Source: a virus
Virus record (IMG/VR): IMGVR_UViG_3300022927_000154
Location: 1-20,602 of that record
Reading direction: 5' to 3' (one strand)
DNA length: 20,602 bases
Position numbers and translations under genes: made by a program. This document shows positions 7,149 through 16,667 of the stretch, one piece after another (positions within the stretch are counted from its first letter, which is position 1; every line of letters begins with the position of its first letter). The notes below the pieces were generated by a model. That model had not been told where the DNA came from and did not search any database. It saw nothing but the letters and a program-made list of their open reading frames with translations.

Positions 7149-7732
7149 TAGACCATGCCTCGCATTTGTCGCATTTTAATCATGTCTTGGATGCTTGGTG
7201 CTGCGCCTAGATTCTGCTGCTGAATTGTTTGCATTGCAGATGATGGCTGACCGATCGTTTGCGGTTGAGCTTGTGCCTGCTGAATAGGCTGAGCTGTACC
7301 TGCACGCTCAATAGGCTTCAAGATAGATCCTTGTGGTGGTGGCGGAGCTTTAGGGCCACTATCGCCACCTAATGCACCTAAACCTTTAGCTATTGCGCCT
7401 GCCATTCCTGCAACATCAAAACCAGAACCCATTCCGGCAGTTGCTGACTGGCCTAGCACATCTTTCATTTGATCTGCGCCAATGCCTTGACCCGCTAGTT
7501 GAGCTGCATCTGCTGCTTCAAAAGCGTCAAAACCAGAACCCTCAAGGATTCCAGCCATCTGATCAGTGCCGATACCTGATTCTGCTAAGCCTGCTGCATC
7601 AGCAGCCAAGAAGTCTGCATTCTCAAGAGCGGCAGCTTTCTCGCCACCAAAAGCATTTCCAACTGATGACCAGTCAAATTTATCTTTATCTTTCTCCCAA
7701 GGATACTTGAAGGAGCCAAAAATACTGCTCAT
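7148..7732 (-). CDS. Ala/Gly/Gln-rich virion-associated protein with a 30-residue internal repeat (194 aa)
   Basis: Unrecognised. The N-terminus (MSSIFGSFKYPWEKDKDKFDW) is followed by two adjacent copies of a roughly 30-residue unit, at about 41-70 and 71-109, each built on AADAAxLAxxGIGxDQM and ending SGFD. A Gly-rich helix (about 107-124), a polyproline run (about 129-133) and a Gln-rich tail with IQDMIKMRQMRGM complete it. The start overlaps the preceding stop by one base (TGATG). It lies in the row of ejection-type genes, so a structural or internal virion role is likely. The unusual repeats make this one of the least ordinary proteins of the block. Confidence 0.6.
   Translation of the reverse strand: MSSIFGSFKYPWEKDKDKFDWSSVGNAFGGEKAAALENADFLAADAAGLAESGIGTDQMAGILEGSGFDAFEAADAAQLAGQGIGADQMKDVLGQSATAGMGSGFDVAGMAGAIAKGLGALGGDSGPKAPPPPQGSILKPIERAGTAQPIQQAQAQPQTIGQPSSAMQTIQQQNLGAAPSIQDMIKMRQMRGMV
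7406..7612 (-). repeat. Two-copy internal protein repeat (AADAAxLAxxGIGxDQM)
   Basis: Residues about 41-70 and 71-109 of the 194-aa protein align without gaps for the first 20 or so positions; the second copy then carries an insertion (QSATAGM) before the shared SGFD end. The repeat is clear in protein but diverged in DNA, so the duplication is not recent. Confidence 0.75.
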
Positions 7733-8634
7733 CAGAAAGCACCTTTCAACTCAGGATGAGCGTAGTTGACCTTCATGTAGCCATCGTTATCAACGATAAC
7801 CGCTTCAGGTAGAACCTTGCGAACTTCTTGAGCAAGAACTCCTTTAAACATATTGCCTGCTTTACCAGACTCAATCGCTTGCTTGGTCCACTTCCAAGTG
7901 TAGATACCGAGACCGTTAGCCAACTCTCCAACCTTCTTGATTGACTCTTTCAAGCGAACGTCTGATGAGCCGAATGCGGTAGCACCTAGAGTTAGGTAGT
8001 CGAACAAGCCCGGCTGACGCTGTGTGCCGCCAGTGGTCTGTTGAGTCGATGACATTGGAACTGGGGTAGCGCCCAATGCAGCTGATACATAACCCAAGCT
8101 AGAAACTGGAGCGTTCTGGTAGCCTGCGTACTGTGCCTTAGATGCATCAATCATTGCCTGTTGCAACGCTTGTTGTGCCTGGCCCTGCTGAGCAAGACCA
8201 GATTGAATCTGTTGGCCATAACCAAATGATTGCTGACCAAGACCTGCTAATTGTTGAGCCTGAGCCATGCGGTTCTGGATATCTTGCTGAGCCATTGACT
8301 GAGCGTTCTGATAACCCTGTTGGCGCATAGCTGCTGTCTGAGTGCCAAGGTTCTGCATCACGCCTTTGCCAAACTCGCCAAGAGCTACGCCGTGACGTGA
8401 GCCACCAAATGCACCTGCCTGTCCTGCTTGGTAGTTAAGAGCATTTTCAGCAATTTGTGCGTTACGCAGAATGTCGCCTTGAGTGGCTTGAATAACTTGC
8501 TGGTTGTACGGGTTGGTGTACGGAGATAAGTTAGTGCCTGCTATCGTTCCAGCGCCTGCTGTTCCTGCTAATGCACCTTGTTGAGCCATCGATGCTTGTT
8601 GCATCGGATTTACTGGTACGCCTGCCATGCCCAT
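7732..8634 (-). CDS. Gln/Ala-rich virion protein with C-terminal S74 autoprocessing chaperone domain (300 aa)
   Basis: Residues about 1-215 are rich in Ala, Gln and Gly, with repeated helical stretches such as AMRQQGYQNAQSMAQQDIQ and a GAFGGSRHG motif. From about residue 223 the sequence changes to SSDVRLKESIKKV, the hallmark of the intramolecular chaperone/peptidase S74 domain best known from phage endosialidases. In that family the protein cuts itself between Ser and Asp and a Lys five residues after the Ser is needed; here these are Ser224, Asp225 and Lys229. About 76 residues would be released, ending HPELKGAF. The family normally helps trimeric tail spikes fold, whereas here it is attached to an ejection-type protein. 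The gap to the preceding gene is 11 bases and holds an AAGGT ribosome site. Confidence 0.8.
   Translation of the reverse strand: MGMAGVPVNPMQQASMAQQGALAGTAGAGTIAGTNLSPYTNPYNQQVIQATQGDILRNAQIAENALNYQAGQAGAFGGSRHGVALGEFGKGVMQNLGTQTAAMRQQGYQNAQSMAQQDIQNRMAQAQQLAGLGQQSFGYGQQIQSGLAQQGQAQQALQQAMIDASKAQYAGYQNAPVSSLGYVSAALGATPVPMSSTQQTTGGTQRQPGLFDYLTLGATAFGSSDVRLKESIKKVGELANGLGIYTWKWTKQAIESGKAGNMFKGVLAQEVRKVLPEAVIVDNDGYMKVNYAHPELKGAF
7735..7968 (-). other. S74-type intramolecular chaperone domain with predicted self-cleavage site
   Basis: Encodes residues about 223-300. It shows SDxRLKE, a Gly-Leu-Gly turn, a YTWKW strand, GVLAQEV and a VDNDGYMKVNY end, which matches the order of motifs in the family. 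Predicted scissile bond is Ser224-Asp225. Confidence 0.82.
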
Positions 8635-9513: not shown

Positions 9514-10185
9514 CTATACACTCTTGACCATGAGTGTGATTGATGGGACGGCCGGACAAAATGTCTCAGCCGTATATGTTTTTAACGCTGTATCAGTATC
9601 ATCTGCAGCCCAATACGCCTCAAGGTAATCACCTGCATTCACCTCAAATATAGCGGCGCGGGCGATGGTTTTAGCCTCATCGTTGTCGTGCATGGTAATA
9701 CGCATGGTAGAACCCGGAATATCAGTGCCGTTGATCCTTGGCCAGAACCAAAAGGTTTTAGCGTTAGCAGACTGTGAATTTAGCTGCGCCGTGAAGTGGA
9801 TGTAGTATTTGCCGCTGTTGGTAAAGTTGATGCGGCTAGTCACTGTGTCATCAATAGAAACGCCGTTTGAGTACACTTCAGTACCCCAGGTCAACGCATA
9901 TGCGGTTTCAGTAGCTGCCACTGTTTTGTCGTTGTAATCAACAAAAGCGCCATAACCGTAACCTTGATCAGGTTCGTTTAAGCCATAACCTAGCGGAACC
10001 CATTCACCATCAATGGACACGACAGGGTGATCAATAGCTGGATCCCACAACAAGACGCCGTCCTGGGTAGCCCGAGCGTCATTACCTTTAAAGCTCAGCT
10101 TGTCTCTGACGCGCAAAAGGTATTCGACAAGACGTTCTCCCCAAACATTCCAAGAAGAACCCAACGGTGGCGGTACTTGACTCAT
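9514..10185 (-). CDS. Jelly-roll (C1q/TNF-like) virion surface protein (223 aa)
   Basis: The N-terminal 45 residues contain a conserved-looking amphipathic stretch, GSSWNVWGERLVEYLLRVRD, that probably anchors the protein. After a short beta segment (VVSIDGEWVPLGYG), residues about 85-223 look like a single beta-sandwich: TAYALTWGTEVYSNGVSI, SRINFTNSGKYYIHFTAQL, FWFWPRINGTDIPGS, and FEVNAGDYLEAYWAADDTD. This succession of strands matches the C1q/TNF-like domain found in many phage fibres and decoration proteins. It may be a capsid or tail decoration or a receptor-binding head. The ATG overlaps the upstream stop by one base. Fold assignment is by pattern recognition. Confidence 0.65.
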   Translation of the reverse strand: MSQVPPPLGSSWNVWGERLVEYLLRVRDKLSFKGNDARATQDGVLLWDPAIDHPVVSIDGEWVPLGYGLNEPDQGYGYGAFVDYNDKTVAATETAYALTWGTEVYSNGVSIDDTVTSRINFTNSGKYYIHFTAQLNSQSANAKTFWFWPRINGTDIPGSTMRITMHDNDEAKTIARAAIFEVNAGDYLEAYWAADDTDTALKTYTAETFCPAVPSITLMVKSV

Positions 10186-10658
10186 TACAAATAATTAAAG
10201 TTTAAAGTTATGCGTACACTTTCATCACTGCAAGAACTACTGCAATGTGGTTTTGACGAATCAAAAAGCATTAATCTATTGGCTACAGATTCAACTTCTT
10301 CGCCGTTATCAAGTGTTGTTACGCCGTTGTTTGTGTTGACATAAAAGATCATCCCTTTATGTTCAAAATCTTGATCAACGTGCATGCCATGCTTTTCTAC
10401 CGCAGGCGTTTTGACGTAACAATTCATTTTGGCTCTTAGCAGCTTTTTAACACCTGCATAGCTCAAGAACGGATTAAGCAACTGAAACTCATGTGAGTAA
10501 GCTTGATCGTTATCGTAAAAATGATGAGTAAAATATACTGCGCCATCATCCTCGCTAGCTATACCTTGATCCATACTCCAAGGGAAAAAATCACCATAGA
10601 CCACTGATTTGAATTGATCAAAATCATCTGGTGGCAAAAAGTTGTCGATAATTAACAT
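10185..10658 (-). CDS. Compact 2-oxoglutarate/Fe(II) oxygenase-like protein (157 aa)
   Basis: Predicted non-haem iron dioxygenase that uses 2-oxoglutarate and O2 to hydroxylate an unknown substrate. It starts MLIIDNFLPPDDFDQFK, the usual opening of viral prolyl-hydroxylase-like enzymes. The iron ligands are visible as His93-Val-Asp95 (KHGMHVDQ) and distal His138 (SSKPHCSS), with Arg149 (VRITLNF) as the likely 2-oxoglutarate-binding residue eleven positions later. The length is short for the fold, so it may be little more than the double-stranded beta-helix core. It sits between the hub-like gene and the jelly-roll gene, overlapping each by one base, so it is co-translated with virion proteins. 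It is distinct from the two other oxygenases upstream. Confidence 0.85.
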   Translation of the reverse strand: MLIIDNFLPPDDFDQFKSVVYGDFFPWSMDQGIASEDDGAVYFTHHFYDNDQAYSHEFQLLNPFLSYAGVKKLLRAKMNCYVKTPAVEKHGMHVDQDFEHKGMIFYVNTNNGVTTLDNGEEVESVANRLMLFDSSKPHCSSSCSDESVRITLNFNYL

Positions 10659-12160
10659 TATCGGCGACCACCTGCTTCAGCATTAATACGGAATGTGCCG
10701 ACTCGAAAATCTGAGTTGCCAGTAGCTTCTACGCGAAGTCTTACCTGACGCCCTGTAAAGCGCACAGACGTTGGCATTGATGTCAGGTCATAGTAGGTAC
10801 TAGATGACGGATAAGTACGCTCTGTGTCGTTAGGATGGAACCTGGTCTTAAACTGAACCCTGACTTCTCCTGCTGTTTCTTCATCGCCAATCAACTGATT
10901 GACCTTCATCACAGTATCGCCGCTGCCAATTGAAATAGGCGAAGACTCAGCAAAAGGCGTGTATGAGCCGTGCGATACGCCATGCAATTCATGCTCATAT
11001 ATGTGACCAGTAGCATCAACCCACATAGGCTCATCAAATACGCCTTGATCTGCACCTGCTGTGCGGTCAAGAGTGCCTATTTCCCAATGGTTCTCAGCGT
11101 AGTCGTAACAAACGTAAGAATCACACTCGGTTGCACTAGATGAAGGGTAATACCACCATACTTCACTGTATTCAGAGTTATGAACAGCCCACGCCTTAGT
11201 GCGTTGGTTGTGGTTCATGTTTTCAAACACAAAATCCTGCACGTCACATGGCATTTGCTTGGCGACAGACCCGTCAAAAACGTAAAAAGCCTCTTTGCCC
11301 ATCCAAAATGCACCTGCTTCCAATGCGACCATTGCCCTTCTTGAAACAGCACCGCAGGCTGTGCCAACACGCTCAAAGCCGTAAACGAATGGCGCGCCCT
11401 GATAGGTAGCAACATGGGCGTCAGTAGATGTAACAATGATTGTGCGTCCACGCATACGCGCTGCTTGCATAATCTCGCCGTTAGTTTGTAGCTCAATGTC
11501 GCCGGCTTCGTTAGTCGCCAATGGCGTCCAGACGGTGTTGTCTTCGCGATCACACCATGAGATTTTGCGTGGATTACCACCGGCATGTAGCGCAAAAATA
11601 AATCTTTCTTCGGTAACAAGCATTCCTTTGCAATCAGTCGGGCTGTTTGCAATCTGAGCCGCAGCCGCAGATGTGTTTAGCGTCCACTCATAAAGTTTCC
11701 CGTCAGAAGTACAGCAGCCAACAAGGTACTCGCCCCAGTTATCTAGCGACCATGTATCGGCTTCTTGGAAAACACCGGAATACGGGCGCTTAACACCGTA
11801 ATTGCCTGTGCCAAAATATGTGCCGCCAAACGCAGTGTTTACCGCAGCACTAGCACGACCTGCTGTGAATCCAGCTGGAGTAATGTCAGTGACGTTGCCG
11901 CCGCTTGAAACATACAAAAGCTCATTAGCCGTGCCCATAGCAATGTGTGAGTCACGATTAATGTCAATCCATGTATGCATTCCACGCGGCGGAGCAGTAA
12001 CGCTAGATGATGCATCCGTCTTTTGCGACCAGCCGCCAACAGGGCGCATAGAGCCGCCATGCCAACGGATTAGGTTTGAGTCACGCCACCGGCCTGCGCC
12101 TTCATAATCTGTGCCTATACGGTAAATACCTGCCGGAATTTTCAGCGGGATCAGAGCCAT
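10658..12160 (-). CDS. Tail hub / packaged-DNA-stabilisation-like protein (500 aa)
   Basis: The N-terminus, IPAGIYRIGTDYEGAGRWRD (about 9-27) then SNLIRWHGGSMRPVGGW, matches in my memory a group of podovirus tail proteins compared with P22 gp10, which seals the portal channel. Repeated Trp/Tyr/Gly strands suggest a beta-propeller: NELLYVSSGG, DGKLYEWTLN, RKISWCDREDNTVW, GAFWMGKEAFYVFDG (about 283-297) and SEVWWYYPSSS. The C-terminal part (about 405-500) is a separate beta domain ending GTFRINAEAGGRR. The 61-base gap before it holds a strong AGGAGAG ribosome site. Comparison with gp10 rests on position and fold-like pattern; sequence identity to P22 is not evident. Confidence 0.75.
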   Translation of the reverse strand: MALIPLKIPAGIYRIGTDYEGAGRWRDSNLIRWHGGSMRPVGGWSQKTDASSSVTAPPRGMHTWIDINRDSHIAMGTANELLYVSSGGNVTDITPAGFTAGRASAAVNTAFGGTYFGTGNYGVKRPYSGVFQEADTWSLDNWGEYLVGCCTSDGKLYEWTLNTSAAAAQIANSPTDCKGMLVTEERFIFALHAGGNPRKISWCDREDNTVWTPLATNEAGDIELQTNGEIMQAARMRGRTIIVTSTDAHVATYQGAPFVYGFERVGTACGAVSRRAMVALEAGAFWMGKEAFYVFDGSVAKQMPCDVQDFVFENMNHNQRTKAWAVHNSEYSEVWWYYPSSSATECDSYVCYDYAENHWEIGTLDRTAGADQGVFDEPMWVDATGHIYEHELHGVSHGSYTPFAESSPISIGSGDTVMKVNQLIGDEETAGEVRVQFKTRFHPNDTERTYPSSSTYYDLTSMPTSVRFTGRQVRLRVEATGNSDFRVGTFRINAEAGGRR

Positions 12161-12221
12161 ATCGCTCTCCTATAAATCATTGCTGTGATTTTGGCAGATT
12201 ATCCGGAACATTCCAATAGTA
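12161..12221 (-). promoter_or_regulatory. Longest intergenic gap, with strong ribosome site for the hub-like gene
   Basis: The gap carries AGGAGAG at 12165-12171, about four to six bases before the ATG. A GATAAT hexamer at 12198-12203 resembles a -10 box, but I find no matching -35 at 16-18 bases, so a promoter is only possible. A GGAA/TTCC four-base inverted repeat is too small to be a terminator. Confidence 0.4.
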
Positions 12222-12962
12222 CTATCGATTGAACCTGAACGGGCACTTCGCTTTGCTTTTTCGTGCCTTTTGCAAGCCGCCCACAAAAGACGTTGGTCTA
12301 AAGGTTGCTGCCCTTCTTGCTTCCCACTCATCCTTAGAGACTAGCTCCGTTTTAATTTTCACATTTTTCTGTGTCAAGGGGAGTAAGAAAGCCGCCGGAT
12401 CGTTTTCCTTGAGGGTTAGTTCGTAATCTTCATCCTTTCTAGCAAACATCATATTGACGTTAAGCGTTGATATAAATTCGGTATCAAGAACGCCCTCAAG
12501 CCACGTTATGTGTTCACTGTAATTGTTAGACCATGACGGCATTAGCATTAGCAGATCGACTGGCTCGCTAGACTCAACCATCCAAACCATATCCAACTTC
12601 ATGTGGCAGTTACTTTCATCAGGGCGAAATGTCCCACGCTGATATTCATTGTGCTGCGTAAATCCGCCATCCATGCTCGCAAATGCGTAAGCCCAAAAAT
12701 TAGTGCCTTTTTTGCCGATCTTAAACGCGACATCTGACCACATCGGAATTTCGATCATCTTGTCGTACATATCGGTCAAGCCGCTACATAACTTCATGTT
12801 TGGCAAAGAATGATCCTTATCGAAGTTGTAACCTTCAGGCTTAGGCAGGTTTTTATACCAATCAGGCATATTATTGCGAGCAAGGTGAACACTATGCTGG
12901 TGATACGCGTTTGCGTCGTGACATACAAAAGTAAGCTCGATATCTTTCTCTTTCTTAAACAT
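12222..12962 (-). CDS. Unknown late protein, possibly DUF6065-like (246 aa), inside the oxygenase cassette
   Basis: I recognise only a weak resemblance to the uncharacterised DUF6065 type: an N-terminal beta strand with FVCHD, then MPDWYKNLPKPEG (about 32-44), LCSGLTDMYDKMIEIPMWSD (about 58-77) and a hydrophobic strand LLMLMPSW. No known catalytic motif stands out, though His15, Asp16, His21, His23 and His26 cluster near the start. The last 30 residues are basic with a Lys/Arg-rich tail ending CPFRFNR. It overlaps the upstream oxygenase stop by one base (TGATG) and precedes the hub-like gene. Its position beside oxygenases hints at a linked function, which is inference. Confidence 0.65.
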   Translation of the reverse strand: MFKKEKDIELTFVCHDANAYHQHSVHLARNNMPDWYKNLPKPEGYNFDKDHSLPNMKLCSGLTDMYDKMIEIPMWSDVAFKIGKKGTNFWAYAFASMDGGFTQHNEYQRGTFRPDESNCHMKLDMVWMVESSEPVDLLMLMPSWSNNYSEHITWLEGVLDTEFISTLNVNMMFARKDEDYELTLKENDPAAFLLPLTQKNVKIKTELVSKDEWEARRAATFRPTSFVGGLQKARKSKAKCPFRFNR

Positions 12963-13558
12963 CAGAATTCAGCCCAACCTGTAACGATATACTTCGATCC
13001 AGATAGCGGCGGGTTACCTCTATGGGTATGCGTGAATGCAGCAGGGAACAACACCAGCCTGCCTTTCACGGGTTTTATTCTTTTACCTAAATAAAGAAGC
13101 TCGGTTTCACCGCCTTCCTCAACATCATTGAGATATAAGATATGCGTTAAAATTCTATTAGATTGTGCGCGAGCAGCCGACTCAAAGTGCCAAATATGAT
13201 AACCGCCGCCAGGGTTAGTCTTTTGCACCTTGTTTTCGTAAATAGTGAAGTTATCGCAGTGTTTTAATGCCGAGTATGTTTCAGCATAATTTGGGTATAT
13301 TTTCTGCCAAAAAACGTCATTAAACGTCCTGTTTAATACTGTCCTTAAACCTGAGAACTTTGCCTCAGCATGGCAGTACTCGGCAGTCCAAGTCGATATA
13401 TCTTTCTTGTGTACTTCATCGCCATCATGTAATTCTTGGCGCGTCTTTGTTAGTCCATCTTCATGGTGGATTTCAAAAGCTTTTATTACCTCATCGCACC
13501 ATTCAGGCGTGAAAAAGCCATCATAGACTCCGACAAAGTCGGTTATTTTAGATTGCAT
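12962..13558 (-). CDS. 2-oxoglutarate/Fe(II) oxygenase-like protein with an HxE iron site (198 aa)
   Basis: Predicted dioxygenase of the prolyl-4-hydroxylase-like group. The N-terminus reads DFVGVYDGFFTPEWCDEVI. The core starts at NPGGGYHIWHFESAARAQ, where His124-Phe-Glu126 would be the first two iron ligands, then THILYLNDVEEGGETELLY, and LVLFPAAFTHTHRGNPPL with His177 or His179 as third ligand. Lys189 in SGSKYIVTGW is placed to bind 2-oxoglutarate. Glu in place of the usual Asp is a noteworthy variation. I chose the ATG at 13558, since GAGG lies five bases upstream; a longer frame to 13603 overlaps the previous gene with no better site. The substrate is unknown. It follows the first oxygenase by 14 bases. 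Confidence 0.85.
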   Translation of the reverse strand: MQSKITDFVGVYDGFFTPEWCDEVIKAFEIHHEDGLTKTRQELHDGDEVHKKDISTWTAEYCHAEAKFSGLRTVLNRTFNDVFWQKIYPNYAETYSALKHCDNFTIYENKVQKTNPGGGYHIWHFESAARAQSNRILTHILYLNDVEEGGETELLYLGKRIKPVKGRLVLFPAAFTHTHRGNPPLSGSKYIVTGWAEF

Positions 13559-13572
13559 ATTGACCTCTATTG

Positions 13573-14181
13573 CTATCTGAAACTTAAAAACTGGCTCATG
13601 CAATATCGACCATTACACTTACCTTCATCTTTGCCATCCATGACTACATTAGTAACACCATGCATCTCTAGGCTACAAAAAATATACGTTGTATTGAATT
13701 TTGATTCAAGAACAAAATCATATTCAGGAAAGTACAAGTCTCCGCCGGTAAACTTTTTAGGCTGTTTGAAAAAGTACGTTAAAGCCGTCAGGTTGCTTGC
13801 GTCGTGATGAGGTTTATACAGATCTTCGTTTTCGTAGTAACTAACCAACGTCCAATCTAACGTGCATTTTTCAACAGTTCTAAACACTGCACCAAGCTTG
13901 CGTAAGTCAAGTTGACTGCCTATAGAAAATAACTTTCTGTTGTGGCAAAGGATCGGTGATTCACTTCTATTTTGATAAACATCATCAACCCATACAGCTG
14001 AGTTTTTCTTTAGTAATTCATTGTCGTCAGCCGCAGAGCCTGTTTGCTCTGGTGGTAAAAAAGAGCCTGACTCATGGAACGAATCAAGCTCTTTCATTAT
14101 GTCGCTTACTTCGCTTTCGGTGTAAGCGTTACGGATTTCAACGTATGGAAATGGTTTTTCGTGCTGTATGACCTCATTCAT
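13573..14181 (-). CDS. 2-oxoglutarate/Fe(II) oxygenase-like protein next to the tail fibre genes (202 aa)
   Basis: Predicted iron and 2-oxoglutarate-dependent hydroxylase. It begins MNEVIQHEKPFPYVEIRN, then TESEVSDIMKELDSF. The metal site is readable as His125-His-Asp127 in YKPHHDASNLTALTYFF, followed by a KFTGGDLYFPEY strand pair and distal His174 in LEMHGVTNV; Arg192 in NGRYCMSQF would hold 2-oxoglutarate. The start at 14181 overlaps the upstream stop by eight bases (ATGAATGA), so translation is likely coupled; a frame starting at 14247 would overlap the chaperone gene by 74 bases. The direct position after the fibre and its chaperone makes the fibre a candidate substrate, which is inference. 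Confidence 0.85.
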   Translation of the reverse strand: MNEVIQHEKPFPYVEIRNAYTESEVSDIMKELDSFHESGSFLPPEQTGSAADDNELLKKNSAVWVDDVYQNRSESPILCHNRKLFSIGSQLDLRKLGAVFRTVEKCTLDWTLVSYYENEDLYKPHHDASNLTALTYFFKQPKKFTGGDLYFPEYDFVLESKFNTTYIFCSLEMHGVTNVVMDGKDEGKCNGRYCMSQFLSFR

Positions 14182-14533
14182 CCATGAATGGTACGTCAGG
14201 GAAGCCTTCTTTGGAAGGGTAATCACGCAATGCTTGACGTGTGTCAATCTGCTCTTGCGTCATCGTGCGATCCGATACAGCCCACCAATCGGTGTCCTTA
14301 AGCATCTGGTCGCGCCACTCACGGGCTTCTTTCTTACGCTGCTCTAAATCCGCTGCATCTTTGGCGGTCGCCGCGTCTGCTTGAACTTGATCTAAAGACT
14401 TAGTTCCGTCTTGTGTTCCGGCGTATGTAAACACATCTTCTGTAACTTCTGTGCCATTCGCGGGAACGTAGTCATCCTCACAGATAAGAACGTTTGTTAC
14501 TAAACCGCCTTCAATAATTGCATAGTATTTCAT
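14174..14533 (-). CDS. Tail fibre assembly chaperone (119 aa)
   Basis: Small helper that assists folding or attachment of the tail fibre. The N-terminal 45 residues form a beta unit (YYAIIEGGLVTNVLICEDD), followed by a helix rich in Ala, Asp and Lys. The C-terminal half carries AREWRDQMLKDTDWWAVSDR and QALRDYPSKEGFPD, which I recognise as the phage tail assembly chaperone (APC) signature. It follows the fibre gene by 12 bases, which is the usual place for such a chaperone, and a GGGGT ribosome site lies before its ATG. Family membership is well supported by motif; the partner is assigned by adjacency. Confidence 0.85.
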   Translation of the reverse strand: MKYYAIIEGGLVTNVLICEDDYVPANGTEVTEDVFTYAGTQDGTKSLDQVQADAATAKDAADLEQRKKEAREWRDQMLKDTDWWAVSDRTMTQEQIDTRQALRDYPSKEGFPDVPFMDE

Positions 14534-14545
14534 ATCTTACCCCAA

Positions 14546-15943
14546 TTAACGGTTGAACAAGATTTCAATAAATGTGACTTTAGTTGCCCCAGAGCCAGCA
14601 AGTCCGTTAGGAATCGATGCGCCACCTCGATTTCGACCAAGCACCTGATAAGAGAAGTTGTGAGAATAACGACCCACACCTTCGTTTGTGTTGCCTGTAT
14701 CACTCATGTCTTCAGCAGCTGCAACTGAACCAGTGCCGTTGCTTCCGTTAGGCGTGGAATTAACGTTGTGACTTGCATTTGCGCCATTATTGCCGCCACT
14801 TGAGCCGCCTTGTCCGCCATCTTTTCTTTGTGCAGTCATGTTACTAATAATACCGCTACCGCCTTGACCGCCGTTGCCGCCACGACCGCCGCCGCCGCCT
14901 TGACCGCCATTAGCGTACTGACCGTAATGGTTAGCATATGCGCCACTACCGCCGTTACCGCCAGAATAAGAAACTGTGCCGCCACTACCGTTACCGCCAG
15001 TCTGACCACTCGCTGCGTTTGCAGTCATGCCGTCAAACTGAGCTGCCGAACCAATACTAATTGTAGTGCCAGCTAACGCTTGTGCGTCAGCATAATATTT
15101 TTCAGCGTAACCGCCACCGCCACCGTTTCCGCCGCCACAACAACAAACCAAAACACTGATTGCTGATGGATGTGGGGTATATGTGCCTGAAGCCGTAATA
15201 TTCTGATAGTTAACAGGGAAGCCGAGAGTTTCTTTAAACACACGCCACACACCACCAACAGCGCCAACCAGGTAATCTTTCTTACCTGCCATGATGCCGC
15301 CACCCAGCCCTAACTCGTCAAGTTCATCGGTAGCCTGAATGATTACTTCTTCGCTATCTTCAAGCTTTTGAGAAATAGCAAAAGCCAAACCATCTTGGTA
15401 ACTTGGCAAAGTAATGGTTGTTCTGTCTGAAGTAATTAAAAGCGACTTACCGTTGTCGTTAGCAGTCAACGTGATCGCAGTTGCACCACCGTCATTTACG
15501 TCAATAGTGTCTGAAAACAAACCAGAGCTTGGAGCGTCAGCCCATGACATAGAGCCGTCGCCATCTGAACTCAGGAATTGACCGGCTGTGCCTGTGCTAG
15601 CAACATCCATCGCCGCAGTGCCAACTGAGTTATCAGCAATCTTAGTGCCGTCTACTGCGTCGTCAGCAATGTGTACAGTATCGATTGAGCCATCAACGTA
15701 GTGTTCAGAATCAATGCTATTGTCAGCGATCTTAGTGCCATCTACAGCATCAGCAGCCAAAAGATCTGTCGTGATATCACCTGACGTAAGGGTCGCTTGC
15801 TTTGCTGTAATAGCATCAGCGTTAGTCTTTAGCTGACCATCGATAGTGTCAAGGTTATCATTTAGTTTAGTACCCCAAGTATCCTCAGACGCGCCGACTT
15901 CCGGCTTGGTCAAGCTATAATTGGTTGTCGTAGTATCTGCCAT
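14546..15943 (-). CDS. Tail fibre with glycine-rich C-terminal domain (465 aa)
   Basis: Receptor-binding fibre. It opens with the common fibre start [20 protein letters not shown] (about 7-26) and a short helix with [10 protein letters not shown]. Residues about 64-107 hold two near-identical [13 protein letters not shown]-type units, typical of trimeric fibre shafts. Residues about 140-245 form a beta region with [18 protein letters not shown]. After [13 protein letters not shown] comes [17 protein letters not shown], and residues about 268-405 are dominated by Gly with Ser and Asn, ending in a Gly/Ala/Asn loop region. Glycine-rich fibre tips of this kind (for example in S16 gp38) can form polyglycine-II bundles that bind host receptors. 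The chain closes with [19 protein letters not shown] ribosome site sits about eight bases upstream. Confidence 0.88.
14729..15142 (-). repeat. Low-complexity glycine-rich segment of the tail fibre
   Basis: Encodes residues about 268-405 with many GGN and GGX triplets (for example [19 protein letters not shown]). It is compositional and not an exact tandem repeat. The GGN codons on the minus strand give CCN-rich plus-strand sequence, which produces false reading frames there. Confidence 0.8.
15623..15754 (-). repeat. Two near-identical fibre shaft units (DGTKIADNS)
   Basis: Residues about 64-77 and 94-107 are almost the same in protein, and the two DNA copies differ at only a few bases. They are typical of modular fibre shafts that grow or shrink by recombination. 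Confidence 0.7.
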
Positions 15944-15965: not shown

Positions 15966-16667
15966 TTATGCGGCGATTGTAGTCCAAATATTTGAATCGT
16001 TGGTGATAATTTCCCATTTTTCACGACCGATAGCAATCGTAGCCGATTCAACTACGGAAAGCTGTGTCGTAAACCTGACCCTTTCGACTACCAAAGCAGG
16101 AGTTGCTCTCGCAGTCACGGTTCTAGGCTGAGAATTTACTGTAAATGCACCTTGCGCAGAAGCTGTTGTGTACGCGTAACTATTGAAGGTGCCATCGGCT
16201 AAGTTTGTTGGGACATTCGCCTCTCTAACGCGCTCAGATGAGCTTGCTGAAGATGCTGACGCCGATGCAGAAGCAGAGCCAAGATGGATTTTTTCACCGC
16301 TCGCCGTTGACCCTGCTGAAGTTGCTGACGATATTGTCTGCAAGTCAGCATTATCAAATACGTTGTATCCGTAAACACCACCGCCATAAGCGAGTTTATC
16401 AGTGCGTTTGATTACAACGCCTTCACCGGCTGCAATAATCGTTGAAGTGACTGAAGCTAATGCGCCAGATTCACGTTCACGCATTGCGCTTGCTGCTGTC
16501 GCAGAAGAAACAGATGCCGCTGCTGAACTTTTTAGCGAACGACCACCAGAAGCCGACATTGACGCGGAAGCCGATACAGAAGCGCTACCCTCATGGATAA
16601 CGCCGCTTGTACCGAAGTCGCCTGAACCGTAAAGGTAAAGACTGTAACCGCCGCGTTCAATAGGCAT
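15966..16667 (-). CDS. Ser/Ala-repeat virion protein (233 aa)
   Basis: Probable structural or fibre-associated protein. After GGYSLYLYGSGDFGTSG, residues about 27-88 are built from units of about 20 residues such as SASVSASASMSASGGRSL, SSAAASVSSATAASAMRE and SGALASVTSTIIAAGEGVV. Two more units occur at about 110-149 (SASASASASSASSSERVRE). Each unit has alternating Ser and small residues ending with a Gly or a charged pair, a pattern fitting stacked beta-strands. The C-terminal part (about 150-233) is ordinary beta-rich sequence ending KWEIITNDSNIWTTIAA. I recall similar Ser/Ala repeat proteins in aquatic phages but know no function. It lies between the small conserved gene and the fibre, three bases after its neighbour. 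Confidence 0.65.
   Translation of the reverse strand: MPIERGGYSLYLYGSGDFGTSGVIHEGSASVSASASMSASGGRSLKSSAAASVSSATAASAMRERESGALASVTSTIIAAGEGVVIKRTDKLAYGGGVYGYNVFDNADLQTISSATSAGSTASGEKIHLGSASASASASSASSSERVREANVPTNLADGTFNSYAYTTASAQGAFTVNSQPRTVTARATPALVVERVRFTTQLSVVESATIAIGREKWEIITNDSNIWTTIAA
16221..16589 (-). repeat. Ser/Ala protein repeat region
   Basis: About five units of roughly 20 residues occur in two blocks (16404-16589 and 16221-16340), separated by a Gly/Tyr-rich linker. Copies are divergent in DNA, so length variation by slippage is not obviously recent. Confidence 0.65.

What the first reader, a model, noticed from the sequence alone, without database searches (positions are those of the whole stretch)
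10185..14181. Three different 2OG/Fe(II) oxygenases interleaved with tail genes: a possible virion-modifying cassette
Three oxygenase-like genes (202, 198 and 157 residues) sit within about 4 kb of late structural genes. Each has a readable iron site (HHD/H, HFE/H, HVD/H), and they differ so much that they are not recent copies. They are co-translated with a tail fibre, its chaperone, a hub-like protein and a jelly-roll protein, which suggests that their substrate is made or met late: Lys, Pro or Asn side chains on the fibre or hub, a capsid surface protein, or a sugar or base. Single phage 2OG oxygenases are known, but this interleaved set with an unknown fourth gene looks like a system.
Basis: partly seen in the sequence, partly recalled or inferred. 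Interest (0 to 1): 0.72.

Follow-up and report, generated by a model that had tools for sequence, protein, structure and literature searches.

The report
Phage oxygenase island beside tail fibre
Three real iron-dependent oxygenase genes sit among the tail genes of an uncultured phage, in a slot between tail fibre and tail hub where related and unrelated phages keep up to nine such enzymes; this suggests that the enzymes chemically modify the fibre, but no one has yet looked for the modification.

Summary
Window 10185-14181 carries three intact, mutually divergent 2OG/Fe(II) oxygenase genes, translationally coupled to a fibre chaperone, a hub and a C1q/BclA-like protein. All three keep HxD/E...H and an R or K for 2OG. 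Ox3, in a family that databases call "DNA endonuclease V", models at pLDDT 96.7 as a prolyl-hydroxylase-like fold.

The arrangement recurs. Among 23 dereplicated relatives, 16 of 86 fibre-to-hub slot genes are 2OG oxygenases, against 1 of 277 elsewhere (p=4e-10). In 14 further dereplicated loci holding a fibre chaperone and a hub of the same family, all 65 detected 2OG ORFs lie between the two (0 of 59 elsewhere). Cyanophages S-SM1, S-RSM4, Syn9 and ACG-2014h have similar islands beside tail fibres. Partner genes include Trp halogenase, carbamoyltransferase, desaturase and GT8-like enzymes. The "unknown fourth gene" (phrog_7084; weak dUTPase-like fold) is a recurrent partner.

Best reading: a late module modifying the fibre or another tail-tip protein (confidence 0.5). 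The substrate is inferred; no covariation with fibre type was shown. Many 2OG genes per cyanophage are already published, but read as metabolic or DNA-repair genes. The fibre-to-hub linkage appears new in the papers I could search.

The parts
15966..16667 (-). Tail protein upstream of the fibre (fibN); marks the far edge of the slot
   Evidence: homologs in the same position in many hub relatives; no Pfam or PHROG family
14546..15943 (-). Tail fibre, 465 aa, Gly-rich C-terminal half; proposed main substrate (inferred)
   Evidence: phrog_892 tail fiber 5e-12 and other fibre PHROGs; 17.8% Gly
14174..14533 (-). Fibre assembly chaperone, 119 aa
   Evidence: PF16778 Phage_tail_APC 7e-10, above cut-off; fibre-assembly PHROGs
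13573..14181 (-). ox1: 2OG/Fe(II) oxygenase, 202 aa, HHD..H, R; PKHD-like
   Evidence: PF13640, phrog_61 1.3e-16; invariant H125 and H174; PDB profile hits; clade of island/slot members with support 0.998
12962..13558 (-). ox2: 2OG/Fe(II) oxygenase, 198 aa, HFE..H, K; prolyl-4-hydroxylase-like
   Evidence: PF13640 7.8e-14; phrog_61 1.1e-46; profile to Bacillus P4H 2e-15; invariant H124 and H179
12222..12962 (-). g4: phrog_7084 protein, 246 aa, unknown function, weak dUTPase-like fold; recurrent partner in such islands
   Evidence: contexts; HJTV-1, Syn9; model pLDDT 75, Foldseek dUTPase E 1.4e-3
10658..12160 (-). Tail hub/stabilisation protein, 500 aa; near edge of the slot
   Evidence: phrog_3287 1.4e-82; 80 relatives fetched
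10185..10658 (-). ox3: 2OG/Fe(II) oxygenase, 157 aa, HVD..H, R; family misnamed DNA endonuclease V
   Evidence: phrog_274 1.6e-45; H93/D95/H138/R149 in 55-57 of 58 homologs; model pLDDT 96.7; Foldseek best hits PHD2 and P4H, E about 1e-6
9514..10185 (-). Jelly-roll (BclA_C/C1q-like, weak) protein, coupled to ox3; directly follows the hub in most relatives
   Evidence: PF18573 3e-4, below cut-off; order in relatives

Best explanation
The region is one example of a recurrent, exchangeable modification island that tailed marine phages keep between the tail fibre/chaperone genes and the hub gene. The 2OG/Fe(II) oxygenases, made late and in coupled translation with fibre, chaperone and hub, would hydroxylate side chains of the fibre or adhesin (or another tail-tip protein) while it folds and assembles. 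In richer islands halogenases, carbamoyltransferases and glycosyltransferases would act on the same or further groups. Different enzyme sets paired with different fibres would diversify the receptor-binding surface or stabilise it. Shown: the enzymes, their intact sites, the overlapping gene order and the recurrent location. Inferred: that the substrate is the fibre, which residue is modified, and any effect on adsorption.
For: Three intact 2OG oxygenases overlapping or abutting chaperone, hub and jelly-roll genes. In 23 dereplicated hub relatives 16/86 slot genes are 2OG against 1/277 elsewhere, p=4e-10; no phrog_61 match outside the slot in 16 whole records. In 14 dereplicated loci with chaperone and hub all 65 detected 2OG ORFs lie between them, 0/59 elsewhere. 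Similar islands beside fibres in S-SM1, S-RSM4, Syn9, P-HM2, S-H38 and ACG-2014h, the last with 2OG - chaperone - 2OG. ox2 is nearest to protein hydroxylases (P4H, LH3), ox3's fold to PHD2 and P4H. Partners are tailoring enzymes.
Against: No modified virion residue is known. No covariation between oxygenase and fibre type was found or could be tested. More than half of the dereplicated hub relatives lack a detected slot 2OG (13/23), so it is not essential. Some phage 2OG genes lie beside replication, recombination or head genes. The desaturase in some slots points to lipids rather than proteins. Folds of this family also act on small molecules and nucleic acids.
Confidence: 0.5

Rival explanations
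1. The enzymes modify the host surface (LPS, capsule, lipid or glycan) late in infection, for example to block superinfection or stop progeny sticking to debris. They sit beside the fibre because fibre and receptor modification co-evolve.
For: Slot partners in relatives include a fatty acid desaturase and a GT8-like protein. Receptor-modifying genes carried by phages are established in general (background knowledge).
Against: Translational coupling to chaperone and hub; ox2's nearest solved relatives are protein hydroxylases; no membrane segment or export signal was looked for in ox1-3.
Confidence: 0.17
2. Passive insertion hotspot: the fibre-hub junction recombines often, and 2OG genes, abundant in marine phages, land there without acting on the tail.
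For: The slot is highly variable and patchily filled. The contrast is partly accessory versus core genes. 2OG genes also occur elsewhere in cyanophages.
Against: The slot genes with a recognised family are fibres, chaperones and tailoring enzymes, not a random moron set. Arrays of up to nine 2OG genes lie strictly between chaperone and hub. All nine members of the ox1 clade come from islands or slots. Some slot genes remain unidentified.
Confidence: 0.15
3. Nucleic-acid modification or repair: the oxygenases act on DNA or RNA bases (AlkB- or TET-like), with g4 as a nucleotide enzyme.
For: Some phage 2OG genes sit beside uvsX/uvsY (the repair reading is reported in PMC3037559 and PMC9146016). 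ox1's profile touches TET-like dioxygenase (4e-5). g4's model resembles dUTPase/dCTP deaminase. Carbamoyltransferases occur in other islands.
Against: No C5-methyltransferase in 40 records and one Tet_JBP match over cut-off, in a record without a detected slot 2OG (records are fragments). g4 lacks most dUTPase motifs by eye. Late tail-gene position.
Confidence: 0.09
4. Metabolic (AMG) role: the enzymes consume 2-oxoglutarate or tune host nitrogen and carbon metabolism, as proposed for cyanophages.
For: This is the published proposal (PMC3037559; repeated in PMC9602691).
Against: It does not explain the fibre-to-hub position, three divergent active sites, or arrays with halogenase and carbamoyltransferase.
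Confidence: 0.06

Closest known systems
Cyanophage 2OG-Fe(II) oxygenase gene runs (S-SM1, S-RSM4, Syn9, ACG-2014h; 24 copies in S-SCSM1, PMC9602691)
   Same: Same families (phrog_61, phrog_274), runs of several divergent 2OG genes near tail fibre genes, with halogenase and a g4 relative in Syn9; S-SM1's island has relatives of ox1, ox2 and ox3
   Different: Here a different phage type with a phrog_3287 hub, 2OG genes flanking the hub itself; identities 28-45%; published reading is metabolism or DNA repair, not tail modification
Prolyl 4-hydroxylase / PHD family (Bacillus P4H, PBCV-1 P4H, EGLN1)
   Same: Fold and active-site layout of ox3 by model; ox2 by profile, E 2e-15
   Different: 11-17% identity for ox3; ox2 has HxE in place of HxD; no collagen-like repeat was seen in the window's tail proteins; substrate untested
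T4 endonuclease V (DenV), the database name of ox3's family
   Same: Only the propagated name of phrog_274
   Different: No Pfam endonuclease V match in any of 58 homologs or in the 'DenV' proteins of S-SM1, P-SSM2, HTVC008M and Syn9; the fold is a 2OG oxygenase
phrog_7084 proteins (Syn9 gp43, HJTV-1 gp35), for g4
   Same: Homologous family; neighbours are 2OG, halogenase, fibre or adhesin genes
   Different: Function unknown in all; members of the alignment share 14-30% identity with g4

Membership tests
2OG/Fe(II) oxygenase superfamily (PF13640-type) | HxD/E...H iron triad | tested here: met
   all three proteins; conserved in relatives
2OG/Fe(II) oxygenase superfamily (PF13640-type) | R/K binding the 2OG C5 carboxylate near the C-terminus | tested here: met
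   ox3 R149 in 57/58; ox1 R and ox2 K/R in alignments
2OG/Fe(II) oxygenase superfamily (PF13640-type) | Double-stranded beta-helix fold | tested here: met
   ox3 by model and Foldseek; ox1 and ox2 by profile only, not modelled
2OG/Fe(II) oxygenase superfamily (PF13640-type) | 2OG- and Fe-dependent catalysis | not testable with these tools
   needs enzyme assay
Prolyl hydroxylase (P4H/PHD) | Sequence or fold closest to P4H/PHD | tested here: met
   ox2, ox3; ox1 nearer to PKHD-type
Prolyl hydroxylase (P4H/PHD) | Hydroxylates protein proline | not testable with these tools
   no substrate data; not claimed
T4 endonuclease V (ox3's database name) | Pfam endonuclease V domain or fold | tested here: not met
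   no such match at E<=1 in four named DenV proteins or at E<=0.01 in 58 homologs; Foldseek gives P4H/PHD
TET/JBP base-modification system | Tet_JBP enzyme with C5-methyltransferase in the genome | tested here: inconclusive
   40 records: no PF00145, one Tet_JBP over cut-off; records incomplete
dUTPase/dCTP deaminase (for g4) | Trimeric dUTPase fold | tested here: inconclusive
   Foldseek best E 1.4e-3 on a pLDDT 75 model; sequence match E 0.32
dUTPase/dCTP deaminase (for g4) | Full set of conserved dUTPase motifs | tested here: not met
   read by eye from alignment A3: a motif-3-like GvlD and 'GTPxxQxIPL' seen, motifs 1 and 2 not

The most novel reading that the evidence does not exclude
Phages run dedicated multi-enzyme lines (several 2OG hydroxylases, with halogenase, carbamoyltransferase or glycosyltransferase steps in some), encoded between fibre and hub, which install non-standard residues on the receptor-binding fibre and so diversify its chemistry beyond sequence: a virion post-translational modification system not previously described.
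Probability: 0.33. Interest if true: 0.88.

Novelty: new variant of a known kind. Interest (0 to 1): 0.64.

Why it matters
Phage 2OG oxygenases are common in ocean viruses (up to 24 per genome, PMC9602691) and have been read as metabolic or DNA-repair genes without an assigned substrate. Their confinement to the fibre-to-hub slot in two sets of phage loci makes a single testable prediction: modified residues on the tail tip. If true, phage host recognition has a chemical layer that genome comparisons of fibres cannot see. The work also indicates that two widely copied annotations ("DNA endonuclease V" for phrog_274, and possibly "ferrochelatase" for phrog_2954/3531) hide more members of these islands.

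Tried and rejected
(1) Link to Gly-rich fibres: fibre Gly content overlaps between lineages with and without 2OG. (2) Fibre-type covariation: could not be tested, because the window's fibre C-terminus matches only copies of the same phage among fetched loci. (3) Defence reading: PADLOC gives only a generic CRISPR-associated '2OG' profile to ox1 and ox2; rejected as plain superfamily similarity. (4) DenV reading of ox3: rejected. (5) TET/C5-methyltransferase base modification: 40 records searched, no support, not excluded. (6) g4 tblastn in annotated phages gave nothing directly; its L031 homolog reached Syn9 and haloarchaeal phages. (7) Multi-2OG against single-2OG loci for presence of hub or chaperone: suggestive only (16/27 vs 4/16 dereplicated, p=0.056). 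(8) Papers linking fibres to hydroxylation: none found in searches of an open-licence library. (9) A mixed tree put ox1 in a clade of island/slot members only, while ox2's clade also holds a gene beside the S-RIM2 major head gene.
Full report
What is there. The window is a 20.6-kb fragment of a tailed phage from IMG/VR. Its genes on the minus strand are late virion genes: major head protein, scaffold, portal, ejection-type proteins, hub, fibre and tail proteins. A 26.3-kb contig (L086) is a near-identical copy (hub 100%, ox3 99%); in its 5.9 kb beyond the window I recognised no base-modification gene by eye. The gene order is: tail protein - fibre - fibre chaperone - ox1 - ox2 - g4 - hub - ox3 - jelly-roll protein. 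Chaperone/ox1 overlap by 8 nt; ox2/g4, hub/ox3 and ox3/jelly-roll overlap by 1 nt; ox2 starts 14 nt after ox1 with its own AGAGG site. This fits translational coupling, which was not tested.

Are they 2OG oxygenases? Yes. ox2 passes the Pfam cut-off, ox1 sits at it, ox3 is weak by Pfam but strong to phrog_274. The HxD/E...H triad and the 2OG-binding R/K are conserved in relatives. An AlphaFold2 model of ox3 from 58 homologs has pLDDT 96.7, and its Foldseek neighbours are PHD2 and algal and bacterial P4H. ox2's profile finds Bacillus P4H (2e-15), PBCV-1 P4H and lysyl hydroxylase LH3 (PDB entry identities beyond the printed molecule names are from memory). ox1's finds PKHD-type hydroxylases and, weakly, TET-like enzymes. 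Substrate specificity cannot be read from this.

Is the arrangement conserved? Eighty IMG/VR loci were fetched with the hub as query, and the genes between fibre and hub were mapped. The slot is variable: empty, chaperone only, extra fibre-like proteins, or one to three 2OG oxygenases. After dereplication at 90% hub identity, 23 lineages with a complete slot remain; 10 have 2OG genes. 2OG genes are 16 of 86 slot genes and 1 of 277 others, that one being this phage's own ox3 (Fisher p=4e-10). Searching 16 whole records (up to 35 kb) with phrog_61 found no match outside the slot. Caveat: most genes outside the slot are conserved structural genes, so part of the contrast is accessory versus core.

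A second, largely separate sample supports it. Eighty loci were fetched with ox3 as query; the best is the same phage again (L090). In 58 of the 80 there are two or more 2OG ORFs within 6 kb, up to nine with the first thresholds and ten in one locus with looser ones. In the 14 dereplicated loci holding both a chaperone and a hub, all 65 detected 2OG ORFs lie between the two, and none among 59 other genes. The hub of L091 belongs to the same PHROG as the window's, and phrog_3287 is found in several more of these records. S-SM1, S-RSM4, Syn9, P-HM2, S-H38 and ACG-2014h show comparable runs near annotated tail fibre genes. S-SM1's single island holds relatives of ox1, ox2 and ox3. Exceptions exist: P-SSM7, S-RIM2 and HTVC008M carry 2OG genes beside replication, recombination or head genes, so not every phage 2OG gene is fibre-linked.

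What else is in the islands? Trp halogenase (L009, L155), carbamoyltransferase (L104, L155), fatty acid desaturase (L053-L063 group), a methyltransferase (L129) and a GT8-like protein (L031, just below cut-off). L129 and L155 are islands in records without a phrog_3287 match. g4 belongs to phrog_7084. Its relatives occur as fibre-chaperone-g4-2OG (L177), 2OG-g4-halogenase-like (L183), in the L155 island, between halogenases and 2OG genes in Syn9, and close to fibre and adhesin genes in the haloarchaeal virus HJTV-1. The g4 model is only moderate (pLDDT 75); its best folds are dUTPases (E 1.4e-3), and the weak sequence match also goes to a dUTPase-like motif region. The full dUTPase motif set is not there by eye, so it is treated as a fold hint, not a function.

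How it most likely works. Steps shown: late virion-gene neighbourhood, overlapping genes, intact enzyme sites, recurrent position next to the fibre. Steps inferred: the oxygenases meet the nascent fibre or tail-tip protein with its chaperone, hydroxylate one or more side chains, and in richer islands other enzymes act on the same or further groups. The benefit could be a more varied receptor-binding surface or a more stable fibre. I put this at 0.5, against host-surface modification (0.17), a passive insertion hotspot (0.15), nucleic-acid modification (0.09) and metabolic drawdown of 2OG (0.06); the remainder is for readings not listed.

Relation to what is known. The multiplicity of 2OG genes in cyanophages is published: 24 in S-SCSM1 (PMC9602691), nine in S-SZBM1 (PMC9146016), several per genome in PMC3037559. 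Structural similarity of phrog_61 proteins to human EGLN3 is published too (PMC12774648). Published readings are nitrogen/2OG metabolism, host reprogramming and DNA repair; those of S-SZBM1 are described as scattered through the genome. I found no paper linking them to the fibre-to-hub slot or to virion modification, in a library that lacks most subscription journals. The finding is therefore a new variant of a known kind, with a new and testable reading.

Limits. IMG/VR loci are fragments and were found by similarity to this phage, so frequencies are not population estimates. The 2OG profiles were built from these loci, and more diverged members are missed, for example perhaps the 'ferrochelatase' families. 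Gene calls in relatives are mechanical ORFs, and the fibre edge of the slot was set by homology to fibN or by a short upstream ORF. The host is unknown; the nearest annotated relative by hub infects Octadecabacter.

Noticed in passing
window 10185-10658; L003 8249-8737; L185 12899-13417: phrog_274 is named 'DNA endonuclease V' (denV) across cyanophage records, but the family has a conserved 2OG iron site, a P4H/PHD-like fold and no Pfam endonuclease V match: a propagated misannotation.
   Followed up: yes
L091 3195-3773; L129 3012-3731; L003 11634-12750: Island proteins named 'ferrochelatase' (phrog_2954/3531) sit inside 2OG runs; ox2 itself matches phrog_3531 at 3e-10, so these may be diverged 2OG oxygenases. 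Pfam shows no clear family for the four tested.
   Followed up: partly
L054 5550-6302 and the L053-L063 group: A fatty acid desaturase gene lies between a 383-389 aa 2OG protein and the hub, in the same slot.
   Followed up: no
L155 5336-12485: One island with several 2OG genes, a g4 relative, a carbamoyltransferase and a Trp halogenase, partly on opposite strands.
   Followed up: partly
L184 10094-10936 (HJTV-1 gp35): A g4 relative lies a few genes from the fibre and adhesin genes of a haloarchaeal tailed virus.
   Followed up: no
record of L050 (G055:C1:7905-8339, minus strand): A Tet_JBP match over cut-off (35.8 bits) in a hub relative without a detected slot 2OG.
   Followed up: no
window 7732-8634: Ejection-type protein (phrog_4287) whose C-terminus (DVRLKESI...) matches many fibre PHROGs and looks by eye like an S74-type chaperone domain usual in tail fibres.
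   Followed up: no
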